Of a stretch of DNA of 64,000 nucleotides, positions 4,360 through 62,288 are shown one piece after another. The notes under the pieces were generated by a model. The model saw nothing but the letters and a program-made list of their open reading frames with translations. It searched no databases and was not told where the DNA came from. The DNA is taken from assembly GCA_030247885.1 (NCBI GenBank), contig JAPDRO010000005.1, positions 1,364,001 to 1,428,000 on the forward strand, given 5' to 3'. This stretch comes from Taxawa tesnikishii (nom. ined.). Its lineage: Eukaryota; Ascomycota; Dothideomycetes; Dothideales. Numbering within the stretch: position 1 is the stretch's first letter; each line of letters begins with the position of its first letter. A program made the translations under genes and the position numbers.

Positions 4360-6321
4360 ATGGTATATACTATAGGCCAAAGTCTGTTGATTTGGTTCTT
4401 CAAGATCATCAATCTCATAGTACCATGGCATAAGCTACCCAAGTACATCGGAGCAATCAACCTCCTTGCTCTGCGCGACGAGCTCCGCGAAGAGAATCTC
4501 CACGACGTCTATCCGACAGCAGATTTCCAGGGTACCGTCAAGTCCGATCCTATGCCGGAAACCAAATTCCTGGCAGCCCGCAACTCCGACGGCAAGTTCA
4601 ACGATCCGGCCCGCCCCAAAATGGGCTGCGTGGGTATGCGATTTGGCCGAAACGTCCCACGCAAGTACACCAGTGCGCCGAGTGAACAGGAACTGCTGTA
4701 CCCGAGCCCGCGTCTGATCAGCGAACGTCTGTTAGCCAGAGATACGTTCAAGCCTGCCACCATCGTCAATCTGCTGGCTGCCGCATGGATCCAGTTTCAG
4801 GTGCACGACTGGGCGCAGCATTTCAACAGCACTACCGAGCAATGGGACGTTCCCCTGGCCCATAAAGATCCCTGGACCGAAGAGCACATGCGCATCTACA
4901 AAACGCAGAAGGACGAACCGCTCGATGAAGAAGATCAGAGATACCCTGCGTACAAGAATGAAAACACCCACTGGTGGGATGGGAGCCAGATCTACGGTTC
5001 GACGGAAGCTGCTACAAGAGAGCTGAGGGCGAAGAGTACGTAGAGTGTCCGCAAACTTACACGTACTCGACGTGACTGACAACCTGCAGCATCTGACGGT
5101 ACTCTTACCGTCGACGATATCAATGGCGTCACCTTCCTTCCCCGCGACTCATCCGGCATCCCCTGACGGGCTTCAACTCGAACTGGTGGCTTGGATTGGA
5201 ACTGTTGCACACGCTGTTCGCTCTCGAACACAACGCCATTTGCAGTCAGCTACGCGTGAAGAACCCCACCTGGACCGGAGACCAACTCTTCGATGTTGCG
5301 AGACTGATCAACTGTGCACTGATGGCCAAGATACACACGATCGAATGGACACCTGCCATACTGGCGCATCCTACGCTAGACATAGGAATGCACGCAAATT
5401 GGTCAGGACTTGTGGGACAGAAGCTGTGAGTGGGCTCGAGCAACGTTTGAAACCAGCCAACTGACGTCAAGTTCGTAGTGGTAGCATCCTCGGTCGTATC
5501 TCGAGCAGCGAAGCCATAAACGGTATTCCCGGATCCGGCGCCGACTCAGGCGTAGCACCGTACTGTCTAACCGAAGAATTCGTCTCAGTATACCGACTGC
5601 ATCCTCTGATCCCCGACGACGTTGCGTTTTTCGACGTGGAGGACGGCGCCCACAAATCGACGATCCCGATGGGTGAGCTTGCGTTCGAGAAGGCTCGAAC
5701 CCCTTCAATGACGGCCTTCGCTTTGCCGACCTCTTTTACTCCTTTGGCGTCAACTTCCCGGGTGCGATAACCATCCACAACACGCCGAATTTCATCCGCG
5801 ATCTTCATACACCGGACGGTCTCCACCTGGACATGGGCAGCGTGGACATACTGCGCGACAGAGAGCGCGGCGTTCCTCGCTACTGCGAGTTCCGGCGACT
5901 CTTCCACATGTCCCCGCCCCGCGATTTCCTCACCCTGACAGGCGGAAACAAGTCTCTGGCGGCGGAACTGGCGCAGATCTACGAAAACGACATAGAGAAG
6001 GTCGGTTTGCTCATCGGCTGCCTTTCCGAGCCTCTACCGAAGGGATTCGGATTCAGCGATACTGCTTTCCGCGTCTTTATCCTGATGGCGAGCCGCAGGT
6101 TGAAAAGTGATCGCTTCATTGCTACGGATTTCAAGGAGGAAGTGTACACGAAAGACGGTGTGGATTGGGTACAGAACAACACCATGAAGGACGTTCTTGT
6201 GAGACATTTTCCGGAGCTGAGGGCTAGCTTAAGGGACGTGAAAAATGCGTTTGCACCGTGGACGAAGGTAGGAAGGACGGCAGAGTATAAGGGGAAGGAG
6301 ACGAATGCGCCTCCTGCTTAG
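4360..6321 (+). CDS. Fatty-acid alpha-dioxygenase (heme peroxidase/cyclooxygenase superfamily)
   Basis: Plant-type alpha-DOX relative: a heme enzyme that oxygenates fatty acids at C-alpha to 2-hydroperoxides. Start at 4360 in a good context (CACCATGG). Exons: 4360-5035, 5090-5425, 5479-6321 (introns 54 and 53 bp). Key sites: distal His in QFQVHDWAQHF, NTHWWDGSQIYG, proximal His in AKIHTIEW, and the active-site Tyr region TEEFVSVYRLH. The C-terminal half (YRDRERGVPRYCEFRR-like, MASRRLKSDRF) is also collinear with the family. The frame slips twice by one missing base: at the C-run 5160-5163 and near 5697-5703. With both counted, length is about 618 residues, normal for the family. The slips are probably sequence errors, because conservation continues unbroken on each side. 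Confidence 0.85.
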
Positions 6322-6693
6322 GCTGGGCTGGGCTGGGAGAGCTATCTTTGTTTGAGCCGGGTGGTGAGTTGTGGTAATGCGTCTGCCTGTATGGTTGTCT
6401 TATATCTTTTCCTCTCACGCCGTGCTTATGAAATTGCCATTACCGTTTCCATCCCAGGTAGGCACATCTCGCGGAAGCGCAAAAGTTCGACTCCGACTCA
6501 GCCTTGTCCTTTCTGGCATACAGTAGAGGCTCTGTACGGACACTCATGGATGCCAAGACTTGTATTTATAAGCTGTGCAGGCCACTTTGTATGACGTGAT
6601 TGCCCAAACACATATCGCATCCACTTCAAGCACCTGTGGTACATTCGTAAAGAGACCAATCCAGACCTATAAAGACACACATCACTGTGCAAA
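6322..6693. other. Intergenic, alpha-dioxygenase 3' region and GST promoter
   Basis: About 370 bp. A short GGCTG tandem run lies just after the stop codon (6321-6338). Nothing else is supportable. Confidence 0.5.
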
Positions 6694-7677
6694 ATGGCAG
6701 ATACACGCCCAAACCTCCATCTATACACAACCCAAGTAACGTTTTCCAGACTTCGCGGATTAGCACATCGCTTTGACGCCTTGTAGACTCCCAATGGCAT
6801 TAAAGTCTCTATCACCCTTGAAGAACTCGGGTAAGCTAGACGCTATGGACATAGTAGTATTCGATGTGTCATCTGGGAACAAAGGTCACCTACCGAGCAT
6901 TTGCTGAGCCTGTTGAAGCCTGCCGTACGAGACTCATAAAATCGACATCTCGAAGAATGAACAGAAGACGCCGGAAGTAAGCGGATGACAACAATCGATT
7001 TAAAGACAATGCGCCATGGACTGACGGAATCAGTTTTTGGCCATCAACCCCAATGGCCGCATCCCAGCCCTCACAGACACCTTCTCCGATGGCAAGCAAA
7101 TCCGCGTCTTCGAATCCGGAAGCATCATGCTATACCTCGTCGCCCAATACGACAAGGACTACAAAATCAGCTTTCCCCAGGATCTCGCGACTTCATCGAG
7201 ATGAACAACTGGCTGTTCTTCATGAATGCCGGCGTAGGACCGATGCAGGGCCAAGCGAACCATTTCTTCCGTTACGCGCCGGAACAGATCCAGTACGGCA
7301 TTAACAGATATCAAGGCGAGACCAGGCGTCTCTATGGCGTGCTTGACAAGCACTTGAGCGACACCAAGCAGGATTATCTCGTCGCTAACAAGTGCACTAT
7401 CGCTGACATTGCTCACTGGGGTTGGGTTTCAGCGGCGGGCTGGGCCGGAGTCAATATTGAAGACTTCCCGGCGCTCAAGGCGTGGGAAGAGCGCATGTGG
7501 GCTCGTGAAGGCGTCAAGAAAGGCGCTAACGTTCCTACCCCGTACAAGATGAAGGAGCTGCTGGCGGACAAGGAAGCCGTGGAGAAGCAGGCGGCGGCCG
7601 GAAGAGCCTGGGTTCAGCAGGGAATGAAGGATGATGCTAAGGCTCATGAGGAGAGATCGAAGGCTTCGAAGGTCTAA
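6694..7677 (+). CDS. Ure2-type glutathione S-transferase
   Basis: Cytosolic GST of the fungal Ure2/GTT class, conjugating glutathione to electrophiles. Exons: 6694-6735, 6787-6830, 6919-6976, 7034-7677 (introns 51, 88 and 57 bp, all GT..AG). The thioredoxin-fold N-domain reads [20 protein letters not shown], then the glutathione-site segment [11 protein letters not shown] and ESGSIMLYL; the helical C-domain includes [16 protein letters not shown] and [13 protein letters not shown]. One base is missing in the C-run 7175-7178 (SFP to PGSRDF), after which the conserved sequence continues in another frame; I read it as a sequencing error. Expected length is about 262 residues. It follows the alpha-dioxygenase in tandem; co-function in lipid-peroxide handling is only a guess. 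Confidence 0.88.
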
Positions 7678-8480
7678 GATAACGTAGTGTGAACGCTTTG
7701 AGCTCTGCATTTGTAGCAGGCCAATGTTGTGCGACCAAACAACGTTACGAGAGCGACTTATTGCTAGCTACTGTTATTTTCATGTGCCTTTGAGTACCTC
7801 AAAACAGAACCAAGCAAACCGAAACAAGAGACAAGATACATTAGTATCCAAACACGATGCAAAGCAACCAGCAGTGCCATAAGTACGATAAAAAAGAGTT
7901 GGCCTTGCCAAATCTCCGCATCTTCTCTCCGCCATCAGACTGTGTAATCCAGCACCGCCACTCCATGGTCTAGGAATCTCTGCCCAATTGCTTGGCTGAA
8001 GGATTTCTTAGCAGCTTAGAGCCGCACCAGCGATCGCAGGTTACCCGTGCGAGTGGACGACCGCCACCGAGTTCGAACTGGGCACAGTCTTCTGGATTAG
8101 AAAGGGAGAAGCTGCGGCGAGCGAGACCTTCCCAAAGAGCCGTGACAGCTGACGTAAGCTCAAATCTTTAGATAATATATGCCACATCGTTTGATGCAAG
8201 CTGCGCGCGATGAACACCCGCATTCCATCCTCGCAGCCGCTTCTTGCGAAGGGGATTTTGGCTGTCAGTTACTGTGTTTGCGGACGGACTGGTGCATCAA
8301 TTGATCAGTGATGATATCTGCAGCAGGATAACGGATCGCATATGTACGCCACGAAACCCACGCCAATGGCAGCCATAGGCCGTATGATGAGGAGAATCAC
8401 CAAGCGCCAAGCCCGACGATAGGAGTCAAATAATCTTCCATCCACCTTTTGCTTTTCAACTGTTCCAAATCGCGTGTTGA
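7678..8480. other. Intergenic between GST and aminotransferase
   Basis: About 800 bp without a recognisable gene. If the aminotransferase has an upstream exon bearing its ATG, it must lie here; I could not find a convincing one. Confidence 0.45.
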
Positions 8481-12303: not shown

Positions 12304-14303
12304 ATGCCGCGCGACAGGTTCCTCAAACAGTCGCTCGGCTCGCTCTACGGCCACATCAAGCAGGTACATCGCATACGCGCTGGCAAACAAGCTCTTACTG
12401 ACCCATCCACAGTCGCGCATCCTTGTGGTTGGCGCTGGTGGTATCGGATGTGAGCTTCTCAAAAACCTCGTCACTACTGGCTTCGGGGAGATCCACGTTG
12501 TCGACCTTGACACCATCGATCTATCGAACCTCAACCGGCAATTCCTTTTCAGACACTCGCACATCAAGAAATCAAAGGCACTGGTAGGTGTGGAAGAGTC
12601 GGCCTGAGGGTGACGGGATACTGACGGCCCTGGCTCAGGTAGCCAAAGAGACCGCTGGCAGGTTCAATCCCAACGTCAAGATCGAAGCGCATCATGCGAA
12701 CATCATGGATCCCGATTTCAACGTGGACTGGTTCAAGTCCTTCGTCATCGTCTTCAACGCGCTGGACAACCTTGCTGCGCGCCGCCATGTGAACAAGATG
12801 TGCCTTGCGGCGGACGTACCACTGATCGAGAGCGGTACAACTGGTTTCAACGGCCAGGTACAGCCCATCAAGAGAGGAGCAACAGAGTGCTACGACTGCT
12901 CGCACAAAGAGACGCCAAAGAGCTTCCCGGTCTGCACGATCAGAAGCACACCCAGCCAGCCCATTCACTGCATCGTCTGGGCTAAGAGCTATCTGTTCAG
13001 CGAGTTGTTCGGCATCAGCGAGGATGAGGCCCCGGATTTGGATCACTCGGAAGATTCGGACAACGCGGCTGAGATTGCGAGTCTGAGGGAGGAAGCTGCG
13101 GCGCTCAAGAAGATCCGCATGGCCATGGGTTCGGAGGAGTTTCCGCGTCGCGTATTCGAGAAGGTGTTCACGGACGACGTTGAGCGGTTGAAGAGCATGG
13201 AAGACATGTGGAAATCACGCAGGCCACCAGAGTCGCTCAAGTACGACGATTTGCTCCCAACCGTTGCGCAGGTCGAACCTTCGGTGTCCCTACAGGATCA
13301 GAGAACCTGGACCGTCGCGGAGAACGTCGCAGTTTTCTCGAGTAGTCTCACACGTCTCAGCAACCGCCTCGAGGAGTTGAAAGCCAATGCGCAGAGCGAC
13401 AACGCGCCTCCTGTTTTGACATTCGACAAGGATGATAAAGACGCTTTGGACTTCGTTACCGCGGCAGCAAACCTACGCTCTTCTGTTTTCGGCATCGAGA
13501 TGAAGTCCGAATTCGATATTAAGCAGATGGCCGGCAACATCATCCCAGCTATTGCTACGACCAATGCAACTACTGCTGCGCTCTGCGTACTTGAAGCGTT
13601 CAAAATCATGCAGGAAATCTTCAAAAGGCCAAGATGGTCTTCTTGACCAAATCTAATGACCGCACGATCAGCAAGGAGCCGCTGCGCGATCCGAGACCCG
13701 ACTGTGCGGTGTGCGGAAACGTGCAGGCCAGACTGATGGTTGACACATCCAACACCACTCTCGACCAGCTCGTCGAAGGCTTGCTGAAAGTCAAGCTTGG
13801 CTACACTGGTGAGCTCAGTATCAGCACCGATGCCGGCATAGTCTACGACCCGGATCTGGAGGAAAACTTATCAAAAACCTTGGTGGACTTGGGCATCAAG
13901 AAGGACACTTTCATTACCGTCCGAGATGAGGACGATGAGACCGCCAGAGTAAATTTGGTGCTGGCAATCTTTGATAGGTAAGTCGCTGTTACGACCTTTC
14001 GACAAGACGAAGCTGACCTTGCTTTCCAGCAACCGCTCCGAACAGACTGACCCACTCACTCTCGTGCCTGAAACTATCGAAATCCCTAAGAAGGCAATGC
14101 CTGCCAACGGCGTGGCCACCACCAACGGCGAGCTGGATCCGCCTGAACCTGTCGCGGCGGGTTCCAAACGCAAGCGGAACATGACCGAAGCAGAACTCGA
14201 GAGCGAGAATGTCCGGAAGCGTGGCAAGGTCCTTGAAGAGACGAACCCGAACGGCAGTGCGCCCATCCTCATCGAAGACGAAGGAGCCATCACTCTCGAC
14301 TGA
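12304..14303 (+). CDS. UBA2: UBA2, SUMO-activating enzyme E1 subunit 2
   Basis: Catalytic half of the SUMO E1 (with AOS1); adenylates SUMO and carries it as a thioester in the nucleus. Exons: 12304-12363, 12413-12583, 12639-13977, 14030-14303. The nucleotide-binding loop is [31 protein letters not shown] is intact; the thioester Cys is in [21 protein letters not shown] (about residue 176); zinc-knuckle pairs are ECYDC and DCAVC. The C-terminus has a KRKRN basic patch and ends with an [10 protein letters not shown] tail. One A is missing in the run 13623-13626, shifting the frame between EIFK and KMVFLTKS; everything beyond is well conserved. As UBA2 is generally essential or strongly required in fungi, a sequence error is more likely than a real mutation. 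Expected length 614 residues. Confidence 0.94.
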
Positions 14304-25132: not shown

Positions 25133-26276
25133 TCAAGGGTATCCCTGCCTTTCACCACTCCTCTCATTCAACCCCCAAGCATGCACACTCGCATCATGCA
25201 CCGTAGCCCTACGCATATCCCTTGCAAACTTCCCCTCATACGTCCCTCCCGGGCTCGCGCGATGCATCACACACGTATTGTCCCACATCACCAAATCCCC
25301 ATCATTCTTCCACTCCACCGAAAACGTGTTCTCAGGCCTCGTCGCATGCCCATACAACCTATCGAACAAGTCCCGCGAGTCCTCGGGCGAGAGACCCTCG
25401 ATGTGATGCACGTGACTCGCAATGTACAAGTTCAACCTGCCACTAGGTTCGTGCTTCTGCACCAGCCTGTGTCTGCCCATCGGGTAGTCCGAGGGCTCTA
25501 CATCCGTCAAGAATTCCGGGAGGCGGTTTTGCGGGAGTGGAAGAGGGAGTGCGCGGCCACGTAGTCCTGTTCCAACAGCTCGCGTTGCAGTTCGGGAGGG
25601 AGGGAGGAGAAGGCGGCGCGGGTGTCGGCGAAGTCGGTGTTGCCCCCGTGCCTGCGGGTGGCAGACGAGCTGCGCGCAGGAGGGAGTAACTGCCTCTGCG
25701 CGGGTTGAAGGAGGAGTCGACGTGGAAGAGGCTGTTGCCCTGGGTTAGAGGCGATGTTAGTTGTTGCTTTGAGTGAGGCTGTATCAGAGAGACATGTAGC
25801 GAACAGAGAGGGCCGCGATCACATATGGTGACAGGAGACACGCACAGAGGAGGGGAATTTTGTAGTCGGCGGGAAGTTGAAGCTTTGGGGGAAAGGCGAC
25901 CGCCAACCTAAGACACGGATACTCTCCAACATACCTTGTTCATCGCAGCACGGTGACTAGTCAGCTCCGCAACGCTCCCGTCCTCGTTTAGGTTACTGAC
26001 GTCGAACAGCTGATCCGTACTCAATCTGTGTTTCTTCCCCTTGGCCGTGTAGGGCGCCACGTCGTCCAACTCTCCAAACAACGCGGCAAACTCGACATGG
26101 CTGGCATCATCTAAACCGGTCTTGCGGAAGACCAGGACACCATACTTGGTGATAGCGGCGTAAATCTCCCGAAAATCATCCTCTGAAATGGGAGAGGAGA
26201 AGTCCACACCTGACACCTCGGCTCCGAAGGTGGGGTGCAGTTCGGTGATTGAGATGGCGGATACGCTGTGAGGCAT
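25133..26276 (-). CDS. TauD/TfdA-family Fe(II)/2-oxoglutarate dioxygenase
   Basis: Non-heme iron dioxygenase of the taurine / 2,4-D dioxygenase type, probably acting on a sulfonate or phenoxy-type substrate. Exons: 26276-25935 and 25739-25133 (intron 195 bp). Motifs: HPTFGAEVSGVDFSSPI at the N-terminus, VLVFRKTGLDD, the iron ligand pair in LFHVDSSFNPRR, WKNDGDLVMWDNTCVMHRAS with the second His, and the oxoglutarate-binding Arg in RDMRRATV. Two single bases are missing, at the plus-strand C-run 25643-25647 and at 25516-25517. Conservation resumes right after each, so I treat them as sequence errors. Expected length 316 residues. Confidence 0.87.
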
Positions 26277-26735: not shown

Positions 26736-28909
26736 TCACGCCGCACCGTTCTGCTCCTGCTTCCACTTCGCCGCCATAGCCGCCAACTTGGACAACTTGG
26801 CCGCGCTCTCGTCGTCGGCCGGGAAGACCCAGTCCATGTACTCTTCGAACTCGTTTTCGGCCAGCTTTCTCCGCTTCTTGACGCGCCGCGGCATCTGTTT
26901 CTCCACCTTGTCGAGGTCGGAGGCCGAGCCGTGGGTGGACTCGAAAGATTTCCAGGCGTTGAGGAGGGCGACGCGCTGAGAAACGCGGGTTAGTGAAAGG
27001 TGGGATGATAGGGTTGGGAGGGTCAGAAGGGTTAGGAGTGTGGGGTCGTGACAGATGTAAGGGTTAGACGATGGGGTGGTGGGCTGATGGCAAGGGTAAG
27101 AGGATGTGTAACCAGATGTGCTTACCTCTTCCTTCATATCCTTTTCCTTCATACTCTTGTATGCTCGTTCAAACACCTTGCGAGCGCGTCTCTTTGCCTC
27201 TTCGCTGACCGGCCTCTCCTCATCGCCCTCTTCCTCCTCTTCCTCGGCATCTGGCACGTTAATCTCAAAGTGCGCGTAGCTGATCCAGACTTTGACGTGA
27301 TCCGTCTTTTCGAGCAGGCGCTCGTAAAGCGATCGTGTCCTATCGTACTCGCCCTCTTCCTCCTCGAAATCTATGTACGCCTTCCACAACAGCTCCGGCA
27401 TATCGAGCTGCGGCTGGTCGACCGCGAGCTCGAAAATGGCCCGCGTGCGGTCTAGATCGTCCAGGCCTCGCTCCAGCTCCGCGAACTTGATCCATGCCTG
27501 GCAGTTGCTCGGGTTGTACTCGATGAACTTCTCGTACAGAGTGCGGCATCGCACGAACTCGAAGAGCTTCAGCTCGAGCTCGATATAGCCCCTGAACAGC
27601 TTGTTCTTGGGACACGTGCCGAGGGCGTGGCCGAGTGTTTTCCGTGCCGCCTGTAGCTGCATCTGCCGGATTTCGAACTGCGCCTTCGCGAGCCAAATTT
27701 TTGCGAATGTGAACTTTCTGTGCGGTACGATCTTCAGGCATTCCGTGTAGATCTGGCGGGCCCGATCCACATCCTTGGCCTCCATCTCCTCCCAGATGGC
27801 GTAGAAGATCCACAGGTAAATGTACCGTCTCCAATGCCGCTTCTCTTGTGACGGTGGCAGTTGTGCGATAGCCCGCTCGTAGACGTCGCGCGTGCGGTCC
27901 ACGTCCCCGAGGTCTCTTCTAACCGTGCGTAATCGAACCACGTGTCGTAGTTCTTAGGCTCTGCCTTGACCTGCTCTTCGTACTGCACCCGCCGCTTCGA
28001 GAGAATCACGTCCTCCACGCCTTCCCTGTCGCCATACTGTTTTTCGAACGTCGTGTAGCTCTTGTGCAGGATAGCCGATTTGGACCGTGGCATGCGATCC
28101 AGGGCGTATTTGTAGATTGCTCGCGCCCGCTCATACTCCTTGAGCTTTGCCTCGAATTTCGCGTACGCGATGAAGAGCTTCTCGTCCATAAAATCCTCAC
28201 CCAGGGTCTCGATTGCCATCCCGTACACTTCCCGCACCAGGTCACTCGTCCCGTACTCCTCCTCAAACCGGGCCCATTTGATCCAGTTCCTTGGCTCCGG
28301 ATGCACGATTGTGAAACGCTCAAAGATGGATCTCGCCCTCTCAATCTCTCCATAGCGCGTCTCGAGCTTGATGTAGGCGCCCCACGCGCCCTCGTCCGGC
28401 TCCCATGACATCCACCGCTCAAACACCTGCCGCGTTCCCTGGATATTCCCCAGCGTCTCCTCCATGTACACGTACTTGTACCAGAACTTGTCCACGCGGG
28501 GCAGGATGGTCACGGCGCGGTCCAACAGATTCCGCGCATGCGCTATATTCCTGTTCTTCATCTCGGCCTCGATGTACCTGATCCACAGCGGCACGTTGGT
28601 GCTATCGACGTCCAGCGCTCTCTCGAAGATACTCCGCGCCCTCCTGAACTCTTTCTGTTCCAGTTCCCAGGCGGCATACCGGAACCAGTTGCCCATGTTG
28701 AGCCGGTTGCGTCGCACATAGTTCTCGAATTCTGTGCGTTTTCGTCCTTGGTATTCGTGCAATTCCTCGAGGTCGGCGAAGCGCTGGGTAGGCGCTTGGA
28801 GGGCGGGTTCCTGACGGTCGACGGCCTCGCGCAAGAGCTGTTCGGCGCTGATCTGGATGGGCGCGGCGGCCTTGTTCTTGACCCTGGGAGGGCCGCGCGA
28901 GGAGTCCAT
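26736..28909 (-). CDS. CLF1: CLF1, crooked-neck-like HAT-repeat splicing factor
   Basis: Scaffold of the Prp19/NTC complex needed for spliceosome activation. Exons: 28909-27126 and 26975-26736; intron 150 bp with several TAACCC-like pieces. The protein is an array of HAT repeats: [84 protein letters not shown] and so on, with an acidic [10 protein letters not shown] stretch and a basic tail. One G is missing in the run 27905-27908 (plus-strand C4), between LEETSG and [15 protein letters not shown] repeats continue directly in the next frame. Expected length 674 residues, normal for the family. CLF1 is essential in yeasts, so the slip is very probably a sequence error. Confidence 0.93.
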
Positions 28910-29572: not shown

Positions 29573-31499
29573 ATGGCGACCATTGCGGACGAGCTGTTGA
29601 ACGATTTCGAGGACACTGGCTCCGAGGGCGAGGAGGAGAACGCAGGAGGGAGCGTGCAAGATGATGGAATCGTCGGCGGGCCATCTGCGAGGGGCCTTCG
29701 CAGACCCTCAGACCCCGCAGCGGAGGTCGGCGACATGGAGCTTGATGGAGACGAGGAGGAGGTAGAGGACGTGGATATGGACGGCGACGCAGCTGCTAAC
29801 GGCGCTGCGGAGCACGCAGAAGACGCAGAAGAGACGAAGGCGAGGGTGGAAAAATGCAGCTTGGCGCTGTCAGCGATGTGCGCTCAGTGGCGGGCTTGAT
29901 GAAGACGCTGGAACCAGTACTCGAGGTAAGCGAGCAACCCCATCACCATATGTGCAGCTTTGATTCACAACCAAGAATTAGACCTGACTTCGGCCTTGTG
30001 TTGCAGAAAATAGCACATTACCAGAACTTGCCGCCAGAGAAGCAGACCAGGAACGTTGGCTCGATCGAAGATAACCCAGAGTATCGTCTGTTGACCCAGT
30101 CGAACACGCTCTCCACCTCCATTGACGCCGAGATCATCCTCGTGCACAAATTCATCAGGGATCACTATTCTGTTCGCTTCCCGGAACTGGAAACATTTAT
30201 CGGCAACCCGCTCGACTACGCCAAGGCCGTAGCGATCATCGGAAATGGCCCGATGGAGAACATCAAGAGCATCTCGACATCCACAGACAACATGGTCGGT
30301 CAGTCGCTGAAGCAAGTCCTGGATGGACCGACGTTGATGGTCGTCACGGTCGAGGCCACCACCACGAGGGGACAGCCGCTCTCCGACGCGGAGCTTGCCA
30401 CTGTGAGAAAAGCTTGCGAGATGGTCTTGCGTCTTGACAAGGCCAAGATCACTCTGACTGAATACGTGCAATCGCGCATGAACATGTTCGCCCCCAACCT
30501 GACCACACTCATCGGATCCCTCACAGCAGCACAACTCATCAACTTCGCCGGCGGTATTACCGGCCTTGCCAAAACGCCGTCATGCAACATCCCACCCCTC
30601 GGATCGAAGAAGTCGACGCAAACCGGTTTCGCCACCAACGTGGGTGTCCGGCACCAAGGCTACCTCTACAACTCGCCTCTGATCAAGGAGATCCCCACAG
30701 ATCTGAAGAAGCAAGCCATGCGCATCGCCTCGGCCAAAATCGTCCTCGCCGCCCGCGTCGACCGCGTCCACGAATCTCCCGACGGTTCCACCGGCGAAAC
30801 ACTGAAACAGCAATGTTTGGACCGCCTCGACAAGCTCGTCGAGCCACCTCCAAACCGCGGTGCTCGCGCCCTCCCCGCCCCTGATGACAAGCCCGCACGC
30901 AAGCGCGGCGGTCGCCGCGCTCGCAAGGCCAAGGAAGCAACCGCCATGACCGATCTCCGCAAAGCACAGAACCGCATGGCCTTTGGCAAGGAAGAAGCAG
31001 AGGTCGGCTACGGCACAGGCGACGGCACGAAAGGCCTCGGCATGATCGGGCAAGCGGACGGCGGACGCGTGCGCGCGCAGCAGATCGACCAGCGCACGCG
31101 CGCTAAACTGTCCAAGAAGAATCCGGGCTGGGGCGGTGCCACCCCTCTAATCAATCCTCCGGTCTCGCGTCCACGTTCCGCGGTGGCTTCGGTGGATCGG
31201 CGGGCAATGCAACCGTGCTGCGGAATGCGGGACTCAGGACGACGGGTGTTGGGGGCGCAGGAACGAGCAGTGTGGCCTTCACGCCGGTGCAAGGGTTGGA
31301 GTTGGTGGATCCGAAGGTCAGGGAGGAGATGAATCGGAAAAGAAAGGCCGAAGAGGATCGTTGGTTCAGGGGCGGTACGTTTACCCAGGTGGGTAGTGCA
31401 GGAGGGGCCGGAGGTTCTGGCGGAGCGAATGGTGGGTTCAAAGTTCCTGCGTTGCCGGCTAAGAAGAAGGTTGATACGGGTGCGACGAGAGGTGCTTGA
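29573..31499 (+). CDS. PRP31: PRP31, U4/U6 snRNP splicing factor
   Basis: NOP-domain protein that binds the U4 5' stem-loop with Snu13 and bridges the tri-snRNP. Exons: 29573-29925 and 30007-31499 (intron 81 bp). Seen: an acidic N-tail (MATIADELLNDFED), the coiled region QSNTLSTSIDAEIILVHKFI, the Nop signature LTTLIGSLTAAQLINFAGGI, NIPPLGSKKSTQTGFA, HQGYLYNSPLIKEIP, a basic RKRGGRRARKAKE patch and the Prp31 C-terminal region ending GGFKVPALPAKKK. Two single bases are missing: one A in 29850-29854 and one C at 31156-31157. Expected length 615 residues. An essential gene in yeasts, so these look like sequence errors. Confidence 0.93.
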
Positions 31500-31942: not shown

Positions 31943-32932
31943 TTATAGCTTTGACTGCGAAGGCCCACCCTGAGCAAGCTTGCATATCTTGTCAGCTATG
32001 CCGAAGGCGTATAAGTAACCTAGTCCACCGGCCCCGTAAGCATGGATGACATCCCCTCTCTCTCGACACGGATACCACCGTCACGGTATGGCCGAAATCC
32101 GACTATATCCCTGTCCACATCCGTTCTAGGATCAACCCAGTCGAATGCGTTATTCGTCAATCGATTGACCCGTCGTAGAATATCATGTTTTGTTTCCATG
32201 TCGATTTCGCTGTTGGTAGAATGTGGTTGACTGACACCTCCAAGAATGACACCCCGCTATGGGTCCGAGGAATAACATACGTATATGACGTGCCCTGAAA
32301 CAGTTTGACAGTATCCCAAGAACTCTTCACAAACATGGTTTGCCCGCGGACTGGATATGCTTCTGAATCTCCAGCAAGCTCCCGAGCACCAATCCCCGAT
32401 GCATTGACGAGGACATCAGCTCTTAGCAATTCTCGCGCCTCGTCCAATGTTTCCACAGTCTGGCGCACGAAACGCACACCTTTTCTTGTGAGCTCGGCGG
32501 AGATCCAGGGAGGAAATAAGTAGGATTGACGACTTGAGTAGTGTACGTGAAACCAATCCGAGCACCCATAGGAAGGTCTTCCTTGGGCAAGAATTCGAAA
32601 TCAGAAAAGTATCTTCGGTACCAGATTTTAGATTCGTCGCTTCTGTCGTCGTAATATTCTTCGATAGGTATGGACTGTATCCCGGCGTAAGGCTCGCGTT
32701 CCGCAAGAGCTTTGTAGTATTCCAACGACACCCGTTGCATTTCATGGTCACCATCCGGATGAGCAGCGAGTAGGGCGCCGGCCCAAGGGCTCGCCCAACC
32801 AGTTCCACCGTCACCAGGAAGGTCACGGGCCACGACCATGACCGTATGACCCCGGTCCGCGAGGAGGAGAGCGGCAGAAAGACCGACGATACCAGCGCCT
32901 ACGATTCCAATGGAGGGTAGCTGCTTAGCCAT
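31943..32932 (-). CDS. D-amino-acid oxidase, peroxisomal (C-terminal SKL)
   Basis: FAD enzyme that deaminates D-amino acids with release of hydrogen peroxide. The start is MAKQLPSIGIVGAG at 32932; a single coding exon is seen. Motifs: FAD loop GIVGAGIVGLSAALLL, DLPGDGGTGWASPWAGA, VLVNASGIGARELAGD, PVRGQTMFV, the substrate-site YVIPR and the C-terminal signature GGIRVE followed by HAYGAGGLGY. The protein ends QSKL, a canonical PTS1, consistent with peroxisomes. Three single bases are missing (32508-32510, 32240-32241 and 32053-32056 on the plus strand); the family sequence and the SKL end are recovered after each, so sequence error is likely. Expected length about 330 residues. No intron was needed. 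Confidence 0.88.
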
Positions 32933-34970: not shown

Positions 34971-37900
34971 GCGGATTCCCCTGCATCTACGTACAAAAAA
35001 AGGAAAACTATCATCTTGTCCTATCGTACACTTTGCAAGACATGCACCTCCAAATCCATATAGCGACAAACGGCTCGAAGCTTTGAACTCATCAGTACCC
35101 CCGGTTGTGGCTTATCAGCATGTTTTCCATCTCTGCCCTCGTCGCGTTGTGGGCTATCGTTCGACCTAGCCAGGCTTCTACCCTCTACAATGGAGCACAA
35201 ACCACCGTCCTCTCAGCTGGCATGAGTCAATCTTGCAACGCCGCTTTGAACACTTCGCTGAATTGCCCCGCCAATGACATACAGATGGTCACTTATGGCA
35301 TGTACATGGTGGGCTGAAACACATCGCAGCTACAAGGTCTCTGCACACCGACTTGTAAGGCCTCACTTGGACAGCTTGCGAGCGCCGTCCAATCCGGTTG
35401 CACGACCGAGTCTTTCAACTTCAACAGCGACAACATGACATACACGGATCTGGTTGACCACATCTGGTACAAGGTCGGTCTCATCTGCCTTACGGATGCA
35501 AGCACCGGTAATTACTGCATGGATGTGGAGAATACGTGAGCATTACAGAGTGGATTGATGGTTTACGTATTGATGTGGGATGATTACGGATGGAACATCA
35601 GCACCATGGTCGCTCAAGGGAAGACGACCTGGCCTCACAACACTACCAAATGTTACTACGATTACTCTGACGGTGGCACAGATCCCGTAGTGGACATGAA
35701 TGGCGCTTGCTTCAACCCGTCGGACTACGAATCGATGGGGAAGTGTATGGGAGTAGGTATCTTGTCTATAGCAATCAGTGTCCCCGCCGGACTACTGATA
35801 AAAGATTAGCGAAATGGCCGAACAGGTCTGGGCGAACATAAAGGCGAATTGCAAGCTAAGCCAGCAAGTCCAGCCTGCAAACAACATTACGGGACGTTTG
35901 TAAGACAACCCTTGAGTCGACGTCCTACTGGTACACTGACCTAACAATTTCCACAGCGACAACCTCAATATCACTGCTCCTACTATTGTACCTGACTACG
36001 ACCAAATCATCAACATAACAGTACAACAAACCTGTGCGCAGATCTCTCTGGCTTACCAAATTCCTTTTGCAAGCCTACCGGGGATGAGTTCGGTGATTTG
36101 TGGTGCAGTTCCCGGAGGCACTTCTCTTTGCGCACCTAATTCGTGTGTGATCGCTGTTGTAAACCAGACACAGTCTTTGGCCATGTTCCTGCCAGCGTAC
36201 AGCAACTTCACTAAGGCCCAGTTCTTGTGATGGAACCCGTTCGTCGACACTGGCGTTCTCGGAAGAGGTCAGACTGTATGCGTCGGGTGAGTGCATCCAG
36301 CCCCTTGGAATCTCCAAAATTGAAGGACTGAAGCTGATTCTAGCCATCAAGTCCGCCTGGTGGAACATATGTTCCTTCTCTAGCTGCGCCCGCTAGCCCT
36401 AGCGTCTACGCCAGTACTGCGTAAGTTCTCATTCAGTATCTCCCTTGAGCGTTTCTTGCTATATCTGACGATACCTTACAGCAAAGCAGCCGCACCGACG
36501 GTGTCGGGGACCATCACCAACTGCGGAATGTATTACCTGGTACAACCGGGGACAGCTGCAACACCATATCGCTGAACTTCTCTATCCCATTTTCGCAATC
36601 CAGCAGTGCGGCACTTCACCATCGTTACTCGAACTTACTCCAAAACTTAGCTAACGTAAACCGCGGGGTAGTGAACCAGGTGGGGTAGTGAACCACTAAG
36701 ACGCGACTCTTCTAGCTTCAACTACTATTTGCGCACCGCAACCATAATATAGTCAGAATCTGAGTCGCTATATATGTCTTTAGGCACTTTATCTTCCTTA
36801 TTCTCTAGCGCTTCCTCGATTGGACGCTTACGTAGTCGTCCGCGTGGTTTTTAGTGGATAACTCCGCTTCGGCTACCTTAGCTATTTCGAGTACTTCTTG
36901 CGTACTAAACACAAACCTTCCCTTTAATGCGACTCGCTTTCCTTCTTTCGAGTCTTTCGTATGTTAAGAAGCTCCTACTACTCTTTTACTTACTTGCGCA
37001 ATGTAACGTTCTTGCTATACGTCGCTTTAAAAGTGCGAGTTATTTACTCTATATAGCGCTTTATTAGAGAAGAAACGTCCTACGTAGCTTTAATCGCTAA
37101 TTTGAGTATTATATTCGCTTTGCGTAGCTTAGTACTATTTAGTAGAGAGCTATCTAGTAGCGAAAAGTTTAGATTAGGTTATTATAGAAGTATACGAGGT
37201 TATATATTTACTATAGTTAACTTTGTAGGCAACTTATTAAGTACTATTATAGAGCTTAAAGGCTAGAGACTAGCGCCTTTTTACTTACTAAGGATACTAC
37301 TAGCCTTAAGGGCCTTCGCCCTTACGTAGATATATATCTCCGTTTATTTTATACGTAATATATAGCTAGAGTCGACTTATAAAGTAACGTTAGTCTTTAA
37401 AGTTAGCGCGTACTTAAGCGGTATAAATACGTTAATATTAAGTAGTTAAAATATATATAAATAGTATAGTAGTAAGATAAGTAAGTCAATTATATTCTCT
37501 ATATAAAAAGTAATTACCTTTATAATTATATAGCTACTATAACTATTTATAATTAGTATTCTTTATATTATAAAGTCCTTTAACTATATTAAAGGCTCGA
37601 AGATAATAGTTAGTTATTATAAACTATAACTATTAAACGTTTAGTTACTACTACTAGTCGAGAACTTCTAGTTTAAAGGTATATATATAAGTACTTATAT
37701 AGTATTAATATATTTAGCCTTAAAGATAATTAAGAGTAATATAACTTCCTTAATAATATTTATATACTCGATTATAATTATTTACTCTTATCTACTTTTA
37801 ATTTACTTTTAACTAACTACCTCGTATATATTAACTAATACTCTTAATATTTAACTCGCTTTAACTACGAAGTTAAACTCGTTTATATTATAAACGTACT

Positions 37901-38143: not shown

Positions 38144-39991
38144 ACGTAAACCGCGGGGTAGTGGAACAGGTGGGGTAAGGGAACACTCGAACGCGACCTC
38201 TCTACCTTGTAACGCAGTTACCGCCTACCATGAGTACTTCTACACCTAATAAACCCGTTTATACTGAAGCTGATGTCCAGAATGCCATCTCTGCCCTGAA
38301 AAGAAAGGAATATACGTCAGTTCGTAAGGCTAGTAAAGCGTTCAACATCCCAAGTACTACGCTTTGGAATCGCATGGCTGGACACACTTCGCGCTCTGTA
38401 GCGCATGAAACAGAGCAGATCCTATCAGTCGCGGAAGAGAAGACATTAGTCGGATGGATTACACGTCTTACACGTACCGGCTTTCCTGCTTCGCCTGCGT
38501 TAGTACTGCAAATGGCCGAAGAAATCCGTCGCGGACGCGTGCAGTTGTCGAAGACTTCGCGACCTCCTCCCCGACCGATTGGCGAGAAGTGGCTCGACCG
38601 CTTCAAGTCTCGCCATCCTGAGATCGCAGGCATATGGACTCGTCAGATCGAGAGTGCGCGCTTCAACGCGACAAGTCATGAGAGTGTAAAGAGGTGGTTT
38701 GACGCAGTGACGGAGCTGTTTGTGGAACACAACTATCCTCCGGAGCGCGTATACAACATGGACGAGTCCGGTTTTGCAGTCGGAGCAAGTCAGTCGTCAA
38801 GAGCATTAGTCAACATACGCGAGGCATCTAGCTGGAAGCAGGTCGGAAGCCGAGGGGAGTGGATAACGGCGATCGAGTGTGTGAGCGCTGCCGGGGAAGC
38901 TGTGCCTCCCTTGATCATCTTCAAGGCAAAACACACCAACACAGCGTGGGTACCCGCACACACGCCTCCGAACTGGAGGTTCTCGACTAGCAGTAGCGGC
39001 TGGACGTCCGATAGCCACGGTTACGAGTGGCTGACTACTGTTTTCGAGCCTTTGACGCGGCCAGAAGACCCTACGGCACGGCGACTACTGATTATGGACG
39101 GCCATAGCAGCCATATTACTGCGAACGTGATCGCCTTGTGCATGGGGAATGCGATTGACTTGCTCATCCTGCCACCTCATTGCTCGCATATACTCCAGCC
39201 GCTCGATGTTGGCGTCTTTGCTCCGCTGAAGCGCGCGCTAGCTTCGGAGACCGACGCCGCTTTACGAGTCGACTCTGGCCGCATATCGCGCGTGGAATGG
39301 ACGGAGATGTACATCGGCGCAAGAACTAGAGCCCTTACTACTCGCAACATCCTTGGTGGATGGAGAGGGGCCGGACTTATGCCTCTGAGCCCTATAACGG
39401 TGCTTGACAAGCTACCTACGGAGCCGACTACGGCGGATTCACGACCTCATACACCGCCACAACAACCCGATCTGGACTTATCGCTGCTCCACAGCTCACC
39501 ACCAGATGGCACCGAGCTACGCAAAGCAAACGCGCTGTTCAACTCCACGCTTCAGGCGATCCGAGAGGCTCCATCCCCGGCGAAGCGGTATGCGGAGCGG
39601 ATGACTCGCGCTTTTGAATCAACGCATAGCGAGCTCGTTACTTTGCGCAAACAGGTAGAAGAACAGGAGAAGCTTCTTAACATGCGAAAGACTCGAAAAA
39701 GGGCAAGCGGGTCGCATTGAAAGGGAAGTTCGTGTTTAGTACGGAAGAAGTGCTTGAGATAGCGAGGGCAGCAGAAGCGGAGTCATCGACTAAAAAGCCA
39801 CGTAGACGGCCACGCAAGCGCCCGATTGAGGAGACGCTCGAGAGTAGTGGAGAAGAAGAGGCGGAAGTTGTAGTGAGCGACTCAGATTCGGACTGTATTG
39901 TTGTTGCGGTGCGCAAATAGTAGTTGAAGCCAGAAGGGTCGCGTTTGAGCGTTCCATTACCCCACCTGTTCCACTACCCCGCGGTTTACGT
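38144..39991 (+). mobile_element. Young pogo/Fot-type DNA transposon, nearly intact
   Basis: 1848 bp between TA duplications (38142-38143 and 39992-39993), with perfect or near-perfect terminal inverted repeats (ACGTAAACCGCGGGGTAGTG at the left). Base composition is normal with abundant CA and TG, so it has escaped RIP although related copies nearby are heavily mutated. It carries one transposase gene. It sits inside an older, reverse-oriented copy. Confidence 0.95.
38230..39920 (+). CDS. Pogo/Fot-type transposase (HTH_psq, CENP-B HTH, DDE_1)
   Basis: Cut-and-paste transposase. An N-terminal psq-type helix-turn-helix (EADVQNAISALKRKEYTSVR, KAFNIPSTTLWNRM) is followed by a CENP-B/Tc5-type domain (ILSVAEEKTLVGWITRLTR, GEKWLDRFKSRHPEI). 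The catalytic domain has the three Asp of the family: YNMDESGF, RRLLIMDGHSSH and HILQPLDVGVFAPLK. The C-terminal tail is coiled (LRKQVEEQEKLLN) and then basic and acidic (KKPRRRPRKRP, ESSGEEEAEVV). The first frame ends at 39720, where one base appears missing in the A-run 39696-39700; the tail continues to 39920. The slip is after the catalytic core and has the same form as slips in host genes. Confidence 0.92.
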
Positions 39992-40482: not shown

Positions 40483-41140
40483 TGTCGGCCCAGTTGATGG
40501 CACAAACGTGGCCGTCGTCACGAGTACTCTCGCTCCGTCGCAGGCTCCGACAACCTCTCCGGTGCAGTCCACTGGCTCGACCAGCCCCGTTGGGTCCAAA
40601 GCGACAACCAGTGCCATATCTAGCTCCAAGCCTAGCACCTCAGCAGAATCCAACACAACCAAGCCCACATCGAGTTCGTCCCCGGCGGCATACCCGAGTC
40701 CACCGTCGCCAACAGTGAGCGGAACCACCTCGCAGTGCAAGACATGGTACACGGTGATTTCGGGAGACACTTGCAGTGCAATTGACACAAAATACTCCAT
40801 CACACTCGCGCAGTTGCAAGCCTGGAACCAGGGTTTGAGTTCAGGCTGCACCAACCTGCAAGTGACCTACAGCTACTGTGTTTCTGGACCAGCTGTGGCC
40901 TCCACCGTCAGCTCTATAGCTTCCAAGACCTCTTCGACAGCGTTGTCTACACGCTCACCCACTCAAAGCGGAATGGTGGCCAATTGCAATAAGTTTTATC
41001 AGGCTGTTAGCGGAGATACTTGCAGTACCATCGCAACCAAGTATAGTATCACGGCCACGCAAATTGAATCTTGGAACCCGGCCGTGGGAACTTCCTGTAC
41101 CTCGATCTGGGTCGGATATTGGTATTGTGTATCTGTATAG

Positions 41141-41712
41141 AGCTTGCTCGGAAATATAGTATTAGTTGTGTTAACTTATAACAAGAAGTCATACAGGGGC
41201 AACGGATCTTAGATAGCAGATTGAATTGTAGGGTAGGGTTAAAGACTAGTATACGCGCTTCTAAAGTACAAAAATCGCATAATTTATTGTATATACGCAT
41301 ATCTATAAGCTATTTAAGTTGTAAAGCAATTAAGCAAGTAATGCATGCGTTACTTACTCTAGAAGTTGTGTAGTATAGACTATAGAATAGTGTTACGGAG
41401 CAATCCGCCAAGACTTTTGTCCTCCGGCTGTAGATTCCTCCGGTCCTCCGTTCCTCCGTTCCTCCGTTCCTCCACTGTCCAGCCGACTACGCCTTTAGTT
41501 AGCCCTAACTTCTTATGTCGTATAGCACATGTTGCGCTTCTGTCATTTGTCGCGTCATTGAGCTCTGATGCCGTCGAAATGGCTTGTCCTCTCGAGACAT
41601 GTATATATTGCGAGGAGACGACGCGCCGGACTAGCATCGACACATTGCACACACCGCAACCTCTTTCGCTCTCTCACCCTAGTTACAGAATCAAAGTATC
41701 AGGTCCGTGGAA
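41141..41712. other. Intergenic with a CCTCCGTT tandem repeat
   Basis: About 570 bp between the LysM gene and the oxidoreductase. An 8-bp unit (CCTCCGTT) is repeated about four times near 41436-41476. The first part is AT-rich. No gene is supported. Confidence 0.55.
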
Positions 41713-42758
41713 ATGGGCAAGGATTCAATTCCGTCGACGATGCGCATCTGGAAATACGCCTCAGCCAAGGGTGGACTAGAGAAGCACCTCCAACTGAAGA
41801 CATCGGAGCCGCTACCCCGACCCAACACCACCCAACATCTCGTCCAGGTCCTCGCCGTCGGCCTCAACCCTGTCGACTTCAAGCCCGCCGAAGCTCCTCT
41901 TGTGGGCCGCTTGATGGTTAAGAAACCGGCGACGCCTGGCTTCGACATTGCCGGCCGCATCGTTACCCCAGCCGACGGCTCGACCCTCGAGCCCGGCCAG
42001 CTCGTGTACGGCGCCGTCAGCACCAGCCCTCTTGCCGGCGGCGCCCTGGCCGAATACATCGCTGCGCCCGCCGAGACGATCTGCCCGATCCCCTCTGGTA
42101 TCCCGCCACTCCTCGCTGCTGGCGCCCCCGTCGCGGCTGTTACTGCTTACGGGTCACTCGTTCCCTATATCCGCTCAAGCTCGCGCGTCTTCCTCAACGG
42201 TGGCAGCGGCGGCGTCGGCACTTACGGCATCCAGATAGCTAAGGCCGTAGGCGCGCATGTTACGGTTTCCTGCTCCGCCCACAACGCCGACTTGTGCCGC
42301 TCGCTTGGCGCTGACGACGTGCTTGACTACACCGCACGCCCGCTGCTGGACCAGCTGCGCGATGCCACCGCCGCCGTCGGCCGCCCCTTCGACCACGTCG
42401 TCGACAACGTCTTTAGCGATCCCGCCCTCTACTTCCAGGCCCATACTTACACAGCTCCTAGCGCGAAGTTCATTGAGGTCGCCAGCGGCCGACCCTGGCC
42501 TTCCTGCGCTTCGCCCTCAGCGCCCAGATCTGGCCCAGCTTCCTCGGCGGTGGGCACCGCAAGTTCGTCGTTTTCGTGGCCGACATCAGGCGCGACCATC
42601 TCGAGCAGATTGGAAGCTGGATCGCAGACGGCAGGATTAAGCCCGTCACCGACCGGGTCTTTTCGATGGATGACGCGGTCAAGGCGTTCGAGCGACTAAA
42701 GACGGGCAGGGCGAAGGGGAAGGTGATTGTCGACGTGGCCGGAGAGGGGCAATTATAG
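41713..42758 (+). CDS. Zinc-free MDR / quinone oxidoreductase-like dehydrogenase
   Basis: Medium-chain dehydrogenase/reductase of the NADPH:quinone oxidoreductase / enoyl-reductase type. Start MGKDSIPSTMRIWKYASAKG (a second ATG lies 27 bp downstream). GroES-like N-domain: LAVGLNPVDFKPAEAPLVG, TPGFDIAGRIV; Rossmann motif: VFLNGGSGGVGTYGIQIAKA, GADDVLDYT, FDHVVDNV. No structural-zinc cysteine cluster is present. One C is missing at 42489-42490, after FIEVASG; the rest (LEQIGSWIADGRIKPVTDRV, KAFERLKTGRAKGKVIVDV) continues in the next frame. Expected length 348 residues. No introns. Confidence 0.87.
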
Positions 42759-43988
42759 TATAGTAAGAATACGGCGGAATTCCGAGACTTTTGGTAAGGT
42801 GCTATAGTATAACGACTTTGAGTAAAATAGAATCACTATAAGCTAGCGCTTAAATAACTCTCTTTCCATCTATCGTTGTCGCGACCCGCCGTTGTGGTCT
42901 GTCGGAGCCCCCGAGTAATGTCCGTTTTCTTACGGTTTGCGTTACTCCGTTGTTCATCTAGGCGAGGGATCCCAGACGTACCTGAGCCCTGAGACAGAGT
43001 CAAGAGCGTCAGGCCTGCAACTCGTACCACGAGAGCCCCATCCGACTACGGCGCAATTCTTGTACAAACGACCATCTCTTCGTGTGAAGGGTACTTCGGT
43101 GACTCCTAGCTTGCATAAAGGCGTCCCCGCACGGAGCTGAACACCAGTCAGCATAAGCGAATCGAGGGTATGGGCAGGCGTTCAAGACGGCCGTTTCCGC
43201 CCTTAGCTTGTGCTGCACGAACCGCGATCGGCAAGCTAGGCAAGATGGGGCTTGCAGATGAATCTGGCTGCGGCTAACCAGACTACACATCATGACTCAT
43301 GATGGGCGGTCGAAGCCTGGAATGCATGATTAACCATCATTATAGTCTGGCTTGGGGTTGAAACACAATGCACGGCGTGGCTTGGCGCGGTTGAGGAGAA
43401 AGGTCTACCTTCATCCCGTTCCGTGGGCTTGGGAAGGCTTGTCGAGCCATCCATAACGGGAGCCCGGAGCAGAGCCCTGGCACACCCTACCGTAAGTCCT
43501 CAACCCTGTTGTCGGGACCTCTAGCACACAAAGTATTACCCCTCGCCCTAGTCGGACATGTCTCACTCCTGGCATGCCAATCCGGAACCAAAAAGTAGGA
43601 CGTCTCCACATGCACGCTAGTCTTGTGGCTGGCTGATGGTATTCGGAGATCCGATGTTTGACGACCTCTACAGAACCTGCATAACAGGCTTGTTGCGGCA
43701 GGTTTGCATCGGGAATGCACCGTACAACAAATGCATGGTGGCCTGGGCATGTTGAGCTCCACTAGTTGATGCCAAAACGCTAATACCAGCGTGTCGACTC
43801 TGCAAGAGGGAGCGCCGGCAATCATGTACCCGCAGGGTGAGTCTGCCTCCACGTATAAAGTGATGCTCGAGGCCCAAACACACTAGGAACATACAACAGT
43901 CTTATAGACCTGTACTTGCTCTATCCTCTGTTCTCGTTGTTTGCCACCCGTTCGTTGTTTTACCTCCATCCCGACGTTTCTCTCGAAC
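42759..43988. other. Intergenic, 1.2 kb, with TATA-like box before the membrane-protein gene
   Basis: No supportable gene, tRNA or repeat. TATAAA lies at 43854-43859, about 130 bp before the next ATG and a likely core promoter element. Confidence 0.5.
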
Positions 43989-45829
43989 ATGGCCGAGAAA
44001 AAGTCAGCTACCGAGCAAGTCCGGCCCGTTAGCGATGCTTCCACTGACATTGAGGGGTCTTCTCTGACCCTAATTGGACACCCGGCTACATCTCCAGATT
44101 TCCTTGGCTAGGGCTCAGCGCCCTTTCTACAGTCCTCCTTTGCGCTGCCGCATCTGTTGTCACGCTCGAGATATCCGACGGAAAGTCACAGTCGAACTGG
44201 CCCGAGAAATTGGCACCCAACGTCATTCTTGGAGGTCTCAACAGCTTGGCGAACATCATGTTTGGAATCGCTATCGGAAACGGCATCGCTATTGCTTGGT
44301 GGAGACGAACTTTAAAAGGTGCCACAATCGAAGAGTTGCACCGCTCATGGGCCTTCAGCTCGAGCTTGAAGGAAATAGCGTTGTCCGGCAAATATTTCAA
44401 CTTCATCGCACTGGCCGCTCTCACTACTAAGCTGACCATCGTCGACAATATGCTCCTGCAGCGAGCCACTACTACCACTATCGCCCCGGACGAACCCAAA
44501 ACAATCCCGAGTGTATATGGTTACGCGAACGATACTATTCCGGTCACAGGTCGGATGAATCAACGGGGCGAACCTGCACTTCTGAACTATTGGACCTCTA
44601 GCCTTTTGGGCCAATGGTCAAACAGTGGAGGCTTGCTCCCTACGGACTGGTTTGGCTTTTGATGCAACGACGCGTGTTTTCTCAACGTCACTGCAGCAGG
44701 GTTTGAATTCGACTGCGAAGATGCTGTTCCCAAAGACATCAACTACGGCCAAGTTCTCATGAACTCCGCCCTGACTACAAGTGCATACAACATGAGTGCA
44801 CTGTACCCTAACGCTACTAGTGACGTGCCCCTTTTCAACATCACGTTCGACGTCGACTTCCGCGTCCCAGAGGAGGCCGCCATGTACGGTGACGGCGTCG
44901 CTTACTCCCGGATTATCATGGACATCCTCTATACGGATGCAATCGACACAAACAGTCCGGACGACGGATACAGTAACAGGACCATCGCAAAAACCGACAA
45001 ATCATATGACTGCCCTGGTACGCTCGTACAACAACGCTGCTACCTACGACCCGCTGTAATCACGTATCCTGTCACCTACCGGCAGAGTCATGATGTCAAC
45101 GCCGTGTCGGGCATGAGTTTGGGTGTTAACACCTCATCGTACAATAATTTCGACGGCAACAATTGGGCAGGGCTTTACAACTACACGCAGAAACAGCAAG
45201 ATGGGTTCAAGATTCTGCGACACAACGACGTCTACGAAGAGCATAACACCGTGGCATCCCCTACGGACACTCGGCTCGGCGGCATTCTGCTCGGTCTAGA
45301 AACGTATCTCACAGGCACAGCGGAGATGTGGTTTGACGACATCGCCGGGTTCTCCGTGAGACAGAGCGGGCAAGCAGCTTCTATGCTCCAAACCATGCCT
45401 GAGGCAGTACAGTGCGGCTATTCATACAGCGACCCCTTGACCTATCTAGTGCAGAGCATCAACCAGATCATGTTGCTCATCAGTATCAATCCGACCTACT
45501 ACGTAGACGTTGACGACGACACCGACTCGCATGAAGCTTTTCAGCCCATCTTGACAAACTATACCGCCATAGTGTACCGGAACAACACACACTACGTTAC
45601 TAAGCGTCCCTTTATGTGGGGCGCTTTCGCCTCTATGCTCGCTTGCGTATTGTGCGTGCTACCTACATACTACGGCTATTGGCAGCTTGGGCGCAAGGTA
45701 ACACTAGGGCCCTTCGAGATCGCCAATGCGTTTCGGGCACCCGTGCTCGAACATTCACGAGGCTCGAACGCTGAAGTCGGGAACTTGCTCAAAGAAGTCG
45801 GTGGTAAAAGGTCAAGTATGGAGAGGTAG
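43989..45829 (+). CDS. Fungal multi-pass membrane protein, DUF3176-like
   Basis: Function unknown; architecture fits fungal DUF3176-type proteins. A polar N-tail (MAEKKSATEQVRPVSDASTD) precedes membrane helices LGLSALSTVLLCAAASVVTL, NSLANIMFGIAIGNGIAIAW and NFIALAALTTKLTIVDNML. A long extracytoplasmic loop with many N-x-S/T sites and paired Cys follows (CEDAVPKDINYG, SYDCPGTLVQQRC), and a last helix near FMWGAFASMLACVLCVL. One G is missing at 44084-44085, early in the gene. There is also an in-frame TGA at 44660-44662 (after TDWFGF), in otherwise continuous sequence. With a true stop the gene would be dead. Expected length about 613 residues. No introns. Confidence 0.7.
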
Positions 45830-57410: not shown

Positions 57411-57465
57411 TACGCGCTTTAACGTAATAAGTTATAATAGTATAAAAAGTAATTTAATATAGTAA

Positions 57466-62200: not shown

Positions 62201-62288
62201 TATATTAATAATAATATAACTTCTATTAATAAGTAAGAGAAAATAACTAGTAAGGAAGTAAAAGACGTATATAATACTATATATAGTA

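What the first reader, a model, noticed from the sequence alone, without database searches (positions are those of the whole stretch)
5160..44085. At least sixteen single-base losses at homopolymers, never a gain, in a dozen reading frames
Frames that align continuously with known families slip by exactly one missing base at 5160-5163, about 5697-5703, 7175-7178, 13623-13626, 25516-25517, 25643-25647, 27905-27908, 29850-29854, 31156-31157, 32053-32056, 32240-32241, 32508-32510, 36285-36287, 36548-36551, 39696-39700, 42489-42490 and 44084-44085 (19256-19260 also possible). UBA2, CLF1 and PRP31 are normally essential. The uniform sign points to homopolymer under-calling in the assembly, so automatic annotation of this genome will split or truncate many genes.
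Basis: partly seen in the sequence, partly recalled or inferred. Interest (0 to 1): 0.75.

Follow-up and report, generated by a model that had tools for sequence, protein, structure and literature searches.

The report
Assembly drops bases, breaking fungal genes
Many genes in this stretch of a fungal genome look broken, but the breaks are almost certainly letters dropped by the sequencing method, mostly in runs of identical bases, and not real mutations, so gene lists made from this assembly should be treated with care.

Summary
The window lies in an intron-bearing fungal genome (29.4 Mb, 34 contigs). I tested 18 positions (17 listed, 1 'possible'). At 12 of 18, profiles or solved homologues continue from one frame into the next, and at all 12 the shift is that of one missing base; at 8 of these 12 the pieces overlap or lie within 17 bases, too close for an intron (some matches are weak). 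The other six: one has coding statistics only, three rest on reading frames, one could not be judged, one (19256) was not supported. Outside the window, 8 of 40 junctions between conserved-protein pieces are too tight for an intron, and all 8 have the same sign. 'Never a gain' does not hold strictly genome-wide: three domain-supported frame changes elsewhere go the other way (one gained or two lost), and a homology-free caller gives 29 losses to 12 gains. Independently, runs of six or more identical bases are depleted in coding and noncoding DNA, dropping sharply after length five, but not significantly in E. coli control DNA. Some nanopore base-callers are documented to cap runs at about 5. 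Best explanation: uncorrected long-read, probably nanopore, consensus error. Useful for annotation, otherwise ordinary.

The parts
5160..5163 (+). frame slip in haem peroxidase (Ppo-like, name recalled) gene
   Evidence: An_peroxidase profile 2-191 in one frame, 216-298 in the next, with a 54-base candidate intron just upstream; caller gain 7.2 nats for a missing base, 0.8 for an extra
5697..5703 (+). second frame slip in the same gene
   Evidence: An_peroxidase profile 295-350 (E 0.059) then 354-523 in another frame, 17 bases apart; 5.8 nats vs 0
7175..7178 (+). frame slip in glutathione S-transferase
   Evidence: GST_N (below cut-off) and GST_C in different frames; 6.2 nats vs 0; frames
13623..13626 (+). 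frame slip in UBA2 (SUMO-activating enzyme subunit 2)
   Evidence: 9dqb_B and 3kyd_B (4.8 bits) alignments overlap at the junction with an offset of one base; UAE_UbL downstream in the second frame; 6.5 nats vs 0
25516..25517 (-). frame slip in TauD-family dioxygenase
   Evidence: TauD profile 122-169 then 164-267 in the next frame, pieces overlapping
25643..25647 (-). frame slip in TauD-family dioxygenase
   Evidence: TauD profile 2-90 then 122-169 in the next frame, with a 156-base candidate intron between
27905..27908 (-). frame slip in CLF1 (Crooked neck)
   Evidence: 9l5r_J residues 1-339 in one frame and 339-600 in the next; both codons for residue 339 lie in this run
29850..29854 (+). 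possible frame slip near the N-terminus of PRP31
   Evidence: coding statistics only, 4.3 nats; no convincing homology
31156..31157 (+). frame slip in PRP31
   Evidence: 3jcr_J residues 60-422 in one frame, 445-471 in the next, weak E 0.14
32053..32056 (-). frame slip in D-amino-acid oxidase
   Evidence: 7ct4_A residues 270-342 (E 0.7) then 1c0i_A 328-354 in the next frame (4.8 bits)
32240..32241 (-). frame slip in D-amino-acid oxidase
   Evidence: 1c0i_A 144-231 then 7ct4_A 270-342 (E 0.7); DAO profile 255-322, E 0.02
32508..32510 (-). frame slip in D-amino-acid oxidase
   Evidence: 1c0i_A 8-140 then 144-231 in the next frame, 8 bases apart
36548..36551 (+). possible frame slip in LysM-like text
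   Evidence: motif by eye only; not pursued
39696..39700 (+). possible frame slip near the end of a Tc5/pogo-like transposase
   Evidence: frames; domains; no profile across the junction
42489..42490 (+). frame slip in zinc-type alcohol dehydrogenase
   Evidence: ADH_zinc_N_2 profile 1-58 then 64-134 in the next frame, 14 bases between the pieces; 3.5 nats vs 0
44084..44085 (+). possible frame slip upstream of DUF3176 domain
   Evidence: frames; DUF3176 from 44156 in the downstream frame

Best explanation
The slips are consensus errors in a long-read assembly, most likely nanopore and not corrected with short reads. A base-caller that models short words cannot see how long a run of identical bases is, so it loses bases in runs, and at a lower rate elsewhere. 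Each loss shifts the reading frame. Shown: the frame shifts, their sign, and the shortage of long runs in the samples read. Inferred: the platform, the base-caller and the lack of correction.
For: 12 of 12 homology-tested slips in the window and 8 of 8 tight junctions outside have the same sign. They fall in genes such as UBA2, CLF1 and PRP31, and outside in CCT-family, HSP70-family, glutamate synthase, glycine decarboxylase and alanyl-tRNA synthetase relatives. In 20 ten-kilobase samples A/T runs fall from 151 of length 5 to 10 of length 6, and G/C runs from 108 to 5. Runs of 6 or more against an order-2 Markov expectation, in those samples plus the window: coding A/T 2 vs 15.6, G/C 1 vs 18.1; noncoding A/T 27 vs 52.9, G/C 5 vs 21.8; E. 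coli control A/T 74 vs 80.5, G/C 5 vs 8.0. Passages of PMC5889714 report base-callers capping runs at 5 bp and a deletion excess (28,791 to 3,900 insertions) among variants of a nanopore human assembly against the reference.
Against: No reads or platform record were seen. Five of 12 sites are at runs of 2 or 3. Three frame changes elsewhere (L022 8803, L024 8229, L026 5835) have the other sign modulo 3. Some long genes are intact (PurL relative in a 1449-aa frame; RPN1 in an 870-aa frame), so density is uneven. No clean assembly of a related fungus was available as a control for run lengths, and in E. coli G/C runs also drop from 14 of length 5 to 1 of length 6 in 50 kb.
Confidence: 0.95

Rival explanations
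1. The slips are unrecognised introns: a short intron removes the apparent frame change.
For: The genes have many candidate introns of 50-70 bases; 31 of 40 junctions outside the window are of intron size; one opposite-sign call elsewhere (L010 7657) is best read as an intron. At 5160, 7175, 25643 and 31156 spacing alone does not exclude one.
Against: At CLF1 the same homologue residue ends one frame and starts the next, and at 8 of 12 sites the pieces overlap or lie within 17 bases. The caller weighed introns and still chose a missing base at 5160, 7175 and 31156. Introns would give either sign.
Confidence: 0.02
2. Real frameshift mutations: the genes are pseudogenes in this strain.
For: A transposase gene and AT-rich DNA are present in the window.
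Against: Genes essential in yeast (recalled) are hit, the sign is uniform in the window, the protein sequence on both sides stays conserved, and noncoding DNA shows the same shortage of long runs.
Confidence: 0.02
3. The cell reads through: ribosomes slip or RNA is edited at these positions.
For: A uniform sign and C or G as the longest run in 11 of 12 quoted intervals are what one such mechanism could give.
Against: No XXXYYYZ slippery heptamer within 12 bases of any of the 12 sites; does not explain the missing long runs in noncoding DNA.
Confidence: 0.01

Closest known systems
Homopolymer capping by k-mer nanopore base-callers (PMC5889714, passages seen)
   Same: Run lengths drop sharply after 5; losses dominate.
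   Different: Platform of this assembly not known; 5 of 12 window sites are at runs of 2-3; a few runs longer than 5 survive (longest 14).
Long-read-only Drechmeria coniospora assemblies (PMC7500977, passages seen)
   Same: Filamentous fungus; homopolymer indels alter the frames of conserved genes.
   Different: There polishing gave more insertions than deletions; here losses dominate.

Membership tests
Homopolymer under-calling in a long-read assembly | Uniform or dominant loss sign in conserved genes | tested here: met
   12 of 12 in the window by homology; 8 of 8 tight junctions outside; homology-free caller in 35 other loci 29 losses, 12 gains
Homopolymer under-calling in a long-read assembly | Shortage of long runs, also in noncoding DNA | tested here: met
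   E. coli control not significant (P 0.26 and 0.19)
Homopolymer under-calling in a long-read assembly | Slips sit on homopolymer runs | tested here: inconclusive
Homopolymer under-calling in a long-read assembly | Accurate reads show longer runs | not testable with these tools
   no reads available
Spliceosomal introns | Gap of about 45 bases or more between homologous pieces | tested here: not met
   pieces overlap or lie within 17 bases at 8 of 12 junctions; at the other 4 spacing does not decide
Programmed -1 ribosomal frameshifting | XXXYYYZ slippery heptamer at the site | tested here: not met
   0 of 12 sites; downstream RNA structure not tested

The most novel reading that the evidence does not exclude
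The genome truly lacks these bases and the fungus restores the frame in many nuclear genes, by single-nucleotide insertional RNA editing or by tolerated ribosomal slippage at short G/C runs.
Probability: 0.01. Interest if true: 0.95.

Novelty: not a real feature. Interest (0 to 1): 0.15.

Why it matters
Gene models, pseudogene counts and gene-loss claims made from this assembly will be wrong in a directional way. The window has 12 homology-supported slips in its first 48 kb, so many genes will be split or truncated. The run-length spectrum is a cheap test that needs no reads or reference and could be applied to any assembly.

Tried and rejected
Intron reading: examined for each homology-tested junction; excluded by spacing at 8 of 12. 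Position 19256: not supported; it lies in the low-complexity tail of a RIO2 gene. The first caller version gave 18 gain calls elsewhere; widening the acceptor, donor and length rules left 12. Of five with the largest gains, Pfam frames or printed frames showed three real opposite-sign changes (L022, L024, L026), one intron (L010), and one that could not be judged (L013 1880; also L013 1554); the other gain calls were not examined one by one. The caller is weak on short exons: in the per-site test it was silent at 25516, 25643 and the three oxidase sites, though an earlier model trained with the window included placed losses at 25539 and 25645. One HSP70-family junction with an implied insert of 38 bases was left undecided. 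Ribosomal RNA as a yardstick could not be run (searches failed). The organism and the assembly's source were not identified; paper searches gave no match that I could tie to it.

Full report
What the window is. It is bases 1364001-1428000 of a 1,437,769-base contig in a 29.4-Mb, 34-contig assembly. The genes carry many candidate introns of about 50-70 bases, a fungal SRP RNA is present, and the CLF1 gene matches best a chain (9l5r_J) that I recall as from Chaetomium. The species was not identified.

Check of the slips by homology. I searched each frame apart, with stops as X. CLF1: homologue residues 1-339 match one frame and 339-600 the next, and the two codons for residue 339 overlap inside 27905-27908. 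UBA2: the upstream alignment is strong, the downstream one to a solved chain has only 4.8 bits, but the UAE_UbL domain lies in that frame at E 1.2e-16; the two overlap with an offset of one base. ADH: profile position 58 ends in one frame and 64 starts in the next, one base short of expectation. TauD: pieces in three successive frames. D-amino-acid oxidase: four pieces in order, in frames that advance the same way three times; the third piece is weak (E 0.7 in PDB, 0.02 in Pfam) and the last sub-threshold. Haem peroxidase: two slips. GST: one. PRP31: one at 31156, downstream side weak. That is 12 of 18 positions tested, all of one sign. At 8 of the 12 the pieces overlap or lie within 17 bases; at 5160, 7175, 25643 and 31156 spacing alone leaves room for an intron. 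The remaining six are 29850 (coding statistics only), 39696, 44084 and 36548 (by reading the frames), 36285 (undecided) and 19256 (not supported).

Homology-free check. I wrote a frame caller with a three-periodic Markov model, introns and equal costs for a missing and an extra base. On synthetic genes it made no slip calls in 120 genes without slips, and placed 96 of 120 planted losses and 95 of 120 planted gains within 45 bases with the right sign; these genes are idealised. In the window, with training that left the window out, losing a base was favoured at 8 of the 18 positions, one of them by only 0.4 nats, gaining one at 1 of 18, and 9 of 18 were silent. In the final version the window gave 10 loss and 2 gain calls, and 35 other loci (28 of them used in training, 15 picked for conserved genes) gave 29 and 12; at a gain of at least 3 nats, 6 to 0 and 13 to 5; at 5 nats, 3 to 0 and 4 to 3.

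Outside the window by homology. From ten searches of the whole genome I computed the implied insert at 40 junctions between neighbouring pieces. 31 are of intron size (45 bases or more; some are in-frame insertions), one is 38 bases and undecided, and 8 are below 30. All 8 shift as for one missing base: one each in a CCT-family gene, an HSP70-family gene, the glutamate synthase relative and the alanyl-tRNA synthetase relative, and four in the glycine decarboxylase relative. Five of the 8 are exactly one base short; the other three agree modulo 3. Runs of 4 or 5 identical bases lie at five of the 8. Relatives of CarB (two genes) and PurL showed no slip.

Against the strict form of the claim. 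Pfam domains and printed frames put three frame changes outside the window in the other direction: L022 8803 (GH3 glycosidase), L024 8229 (RPAP1) and L026 5835 (MUN/C2 protein). Modulo 3 this is one gained or two lost. The last two lie at C runs of 5 and 4, where a two-base loss is possible, but that is inference.

Run lengths. In 200 kb sampled from eight contigs, A/T runs of length 4, 5, 6, 7 number 650, 151, 10, 4 and G/C runs 715, 108, 5, 0. With the window added and split by the caller, runs of 6 or more are below an order-2 Markov expectation in coding DNA (A/T 2 vs 15.6; G/C 1 vs 18.1) and in noncoding DNA (27 vs 52.9; 5 vs 21.8), but not significantly in 86 kb of E. coli (74 vs 80.5; 5 vs 8.0). 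Selection on protein frames cannot explain the noncoding part. An accurate fungal control was not available.

Known behaviour. [quoted passage not shown] A passage of the abstract of PMC8486125 says homopolymer errors are mainly deletions. Passages of PMC7500977 and PMC9453082 describe frame-breaking homopolymer indels in long-read fungal assemblies; in the first, polishing gave more insertions than deletions, so the sign depends on the pipeline.

Verdict. It is most likely an assembly artefact, uneven along the genome. Rival readings (introns, pseudogenes, recoding or editing) are each contradicted above, introns by spacing at 8 of 12 sites only; no slippery heptamer lies within 12 bases of any of the 12 sites.

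Noticed in passing
window 48001-64000: AT-rich block (GC 24-30%) with no ORF of 100 aa or more and a 431-base tandem repeat of 1.9 copies at 57027-57843; it looks RIP-like (not tested); the window ends about 10 kb from the contig end.
   Followed up: no
window 7891-8150 (-): Fungal signal recognition particle RNA, full-length Rfam RF01502 match, 121.3 bits.
   Followed up: no
window 38230-39720 (+): Tc5/pogo-like transposase ORF with DDE_1, HTH_Tnp_Tc5 and HTH_psq domains.
   Followed up: no
window 40748-40843 (+): LysM domain piece, and LysM-like text at about 36.5 kb.
   Followed up: no
L010 about 7657-7712: Candidate intron in a sugar transporter that appears to end in AAG, not the usual YAG.
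   Followed up: partly
G000:C10:269152-272075: Glycine decarboxylase relative with four same-sign frame slips in under 3 kb, while a 4.1-kb PurL relative has none: error density is very uneven.
   Followed up: partly
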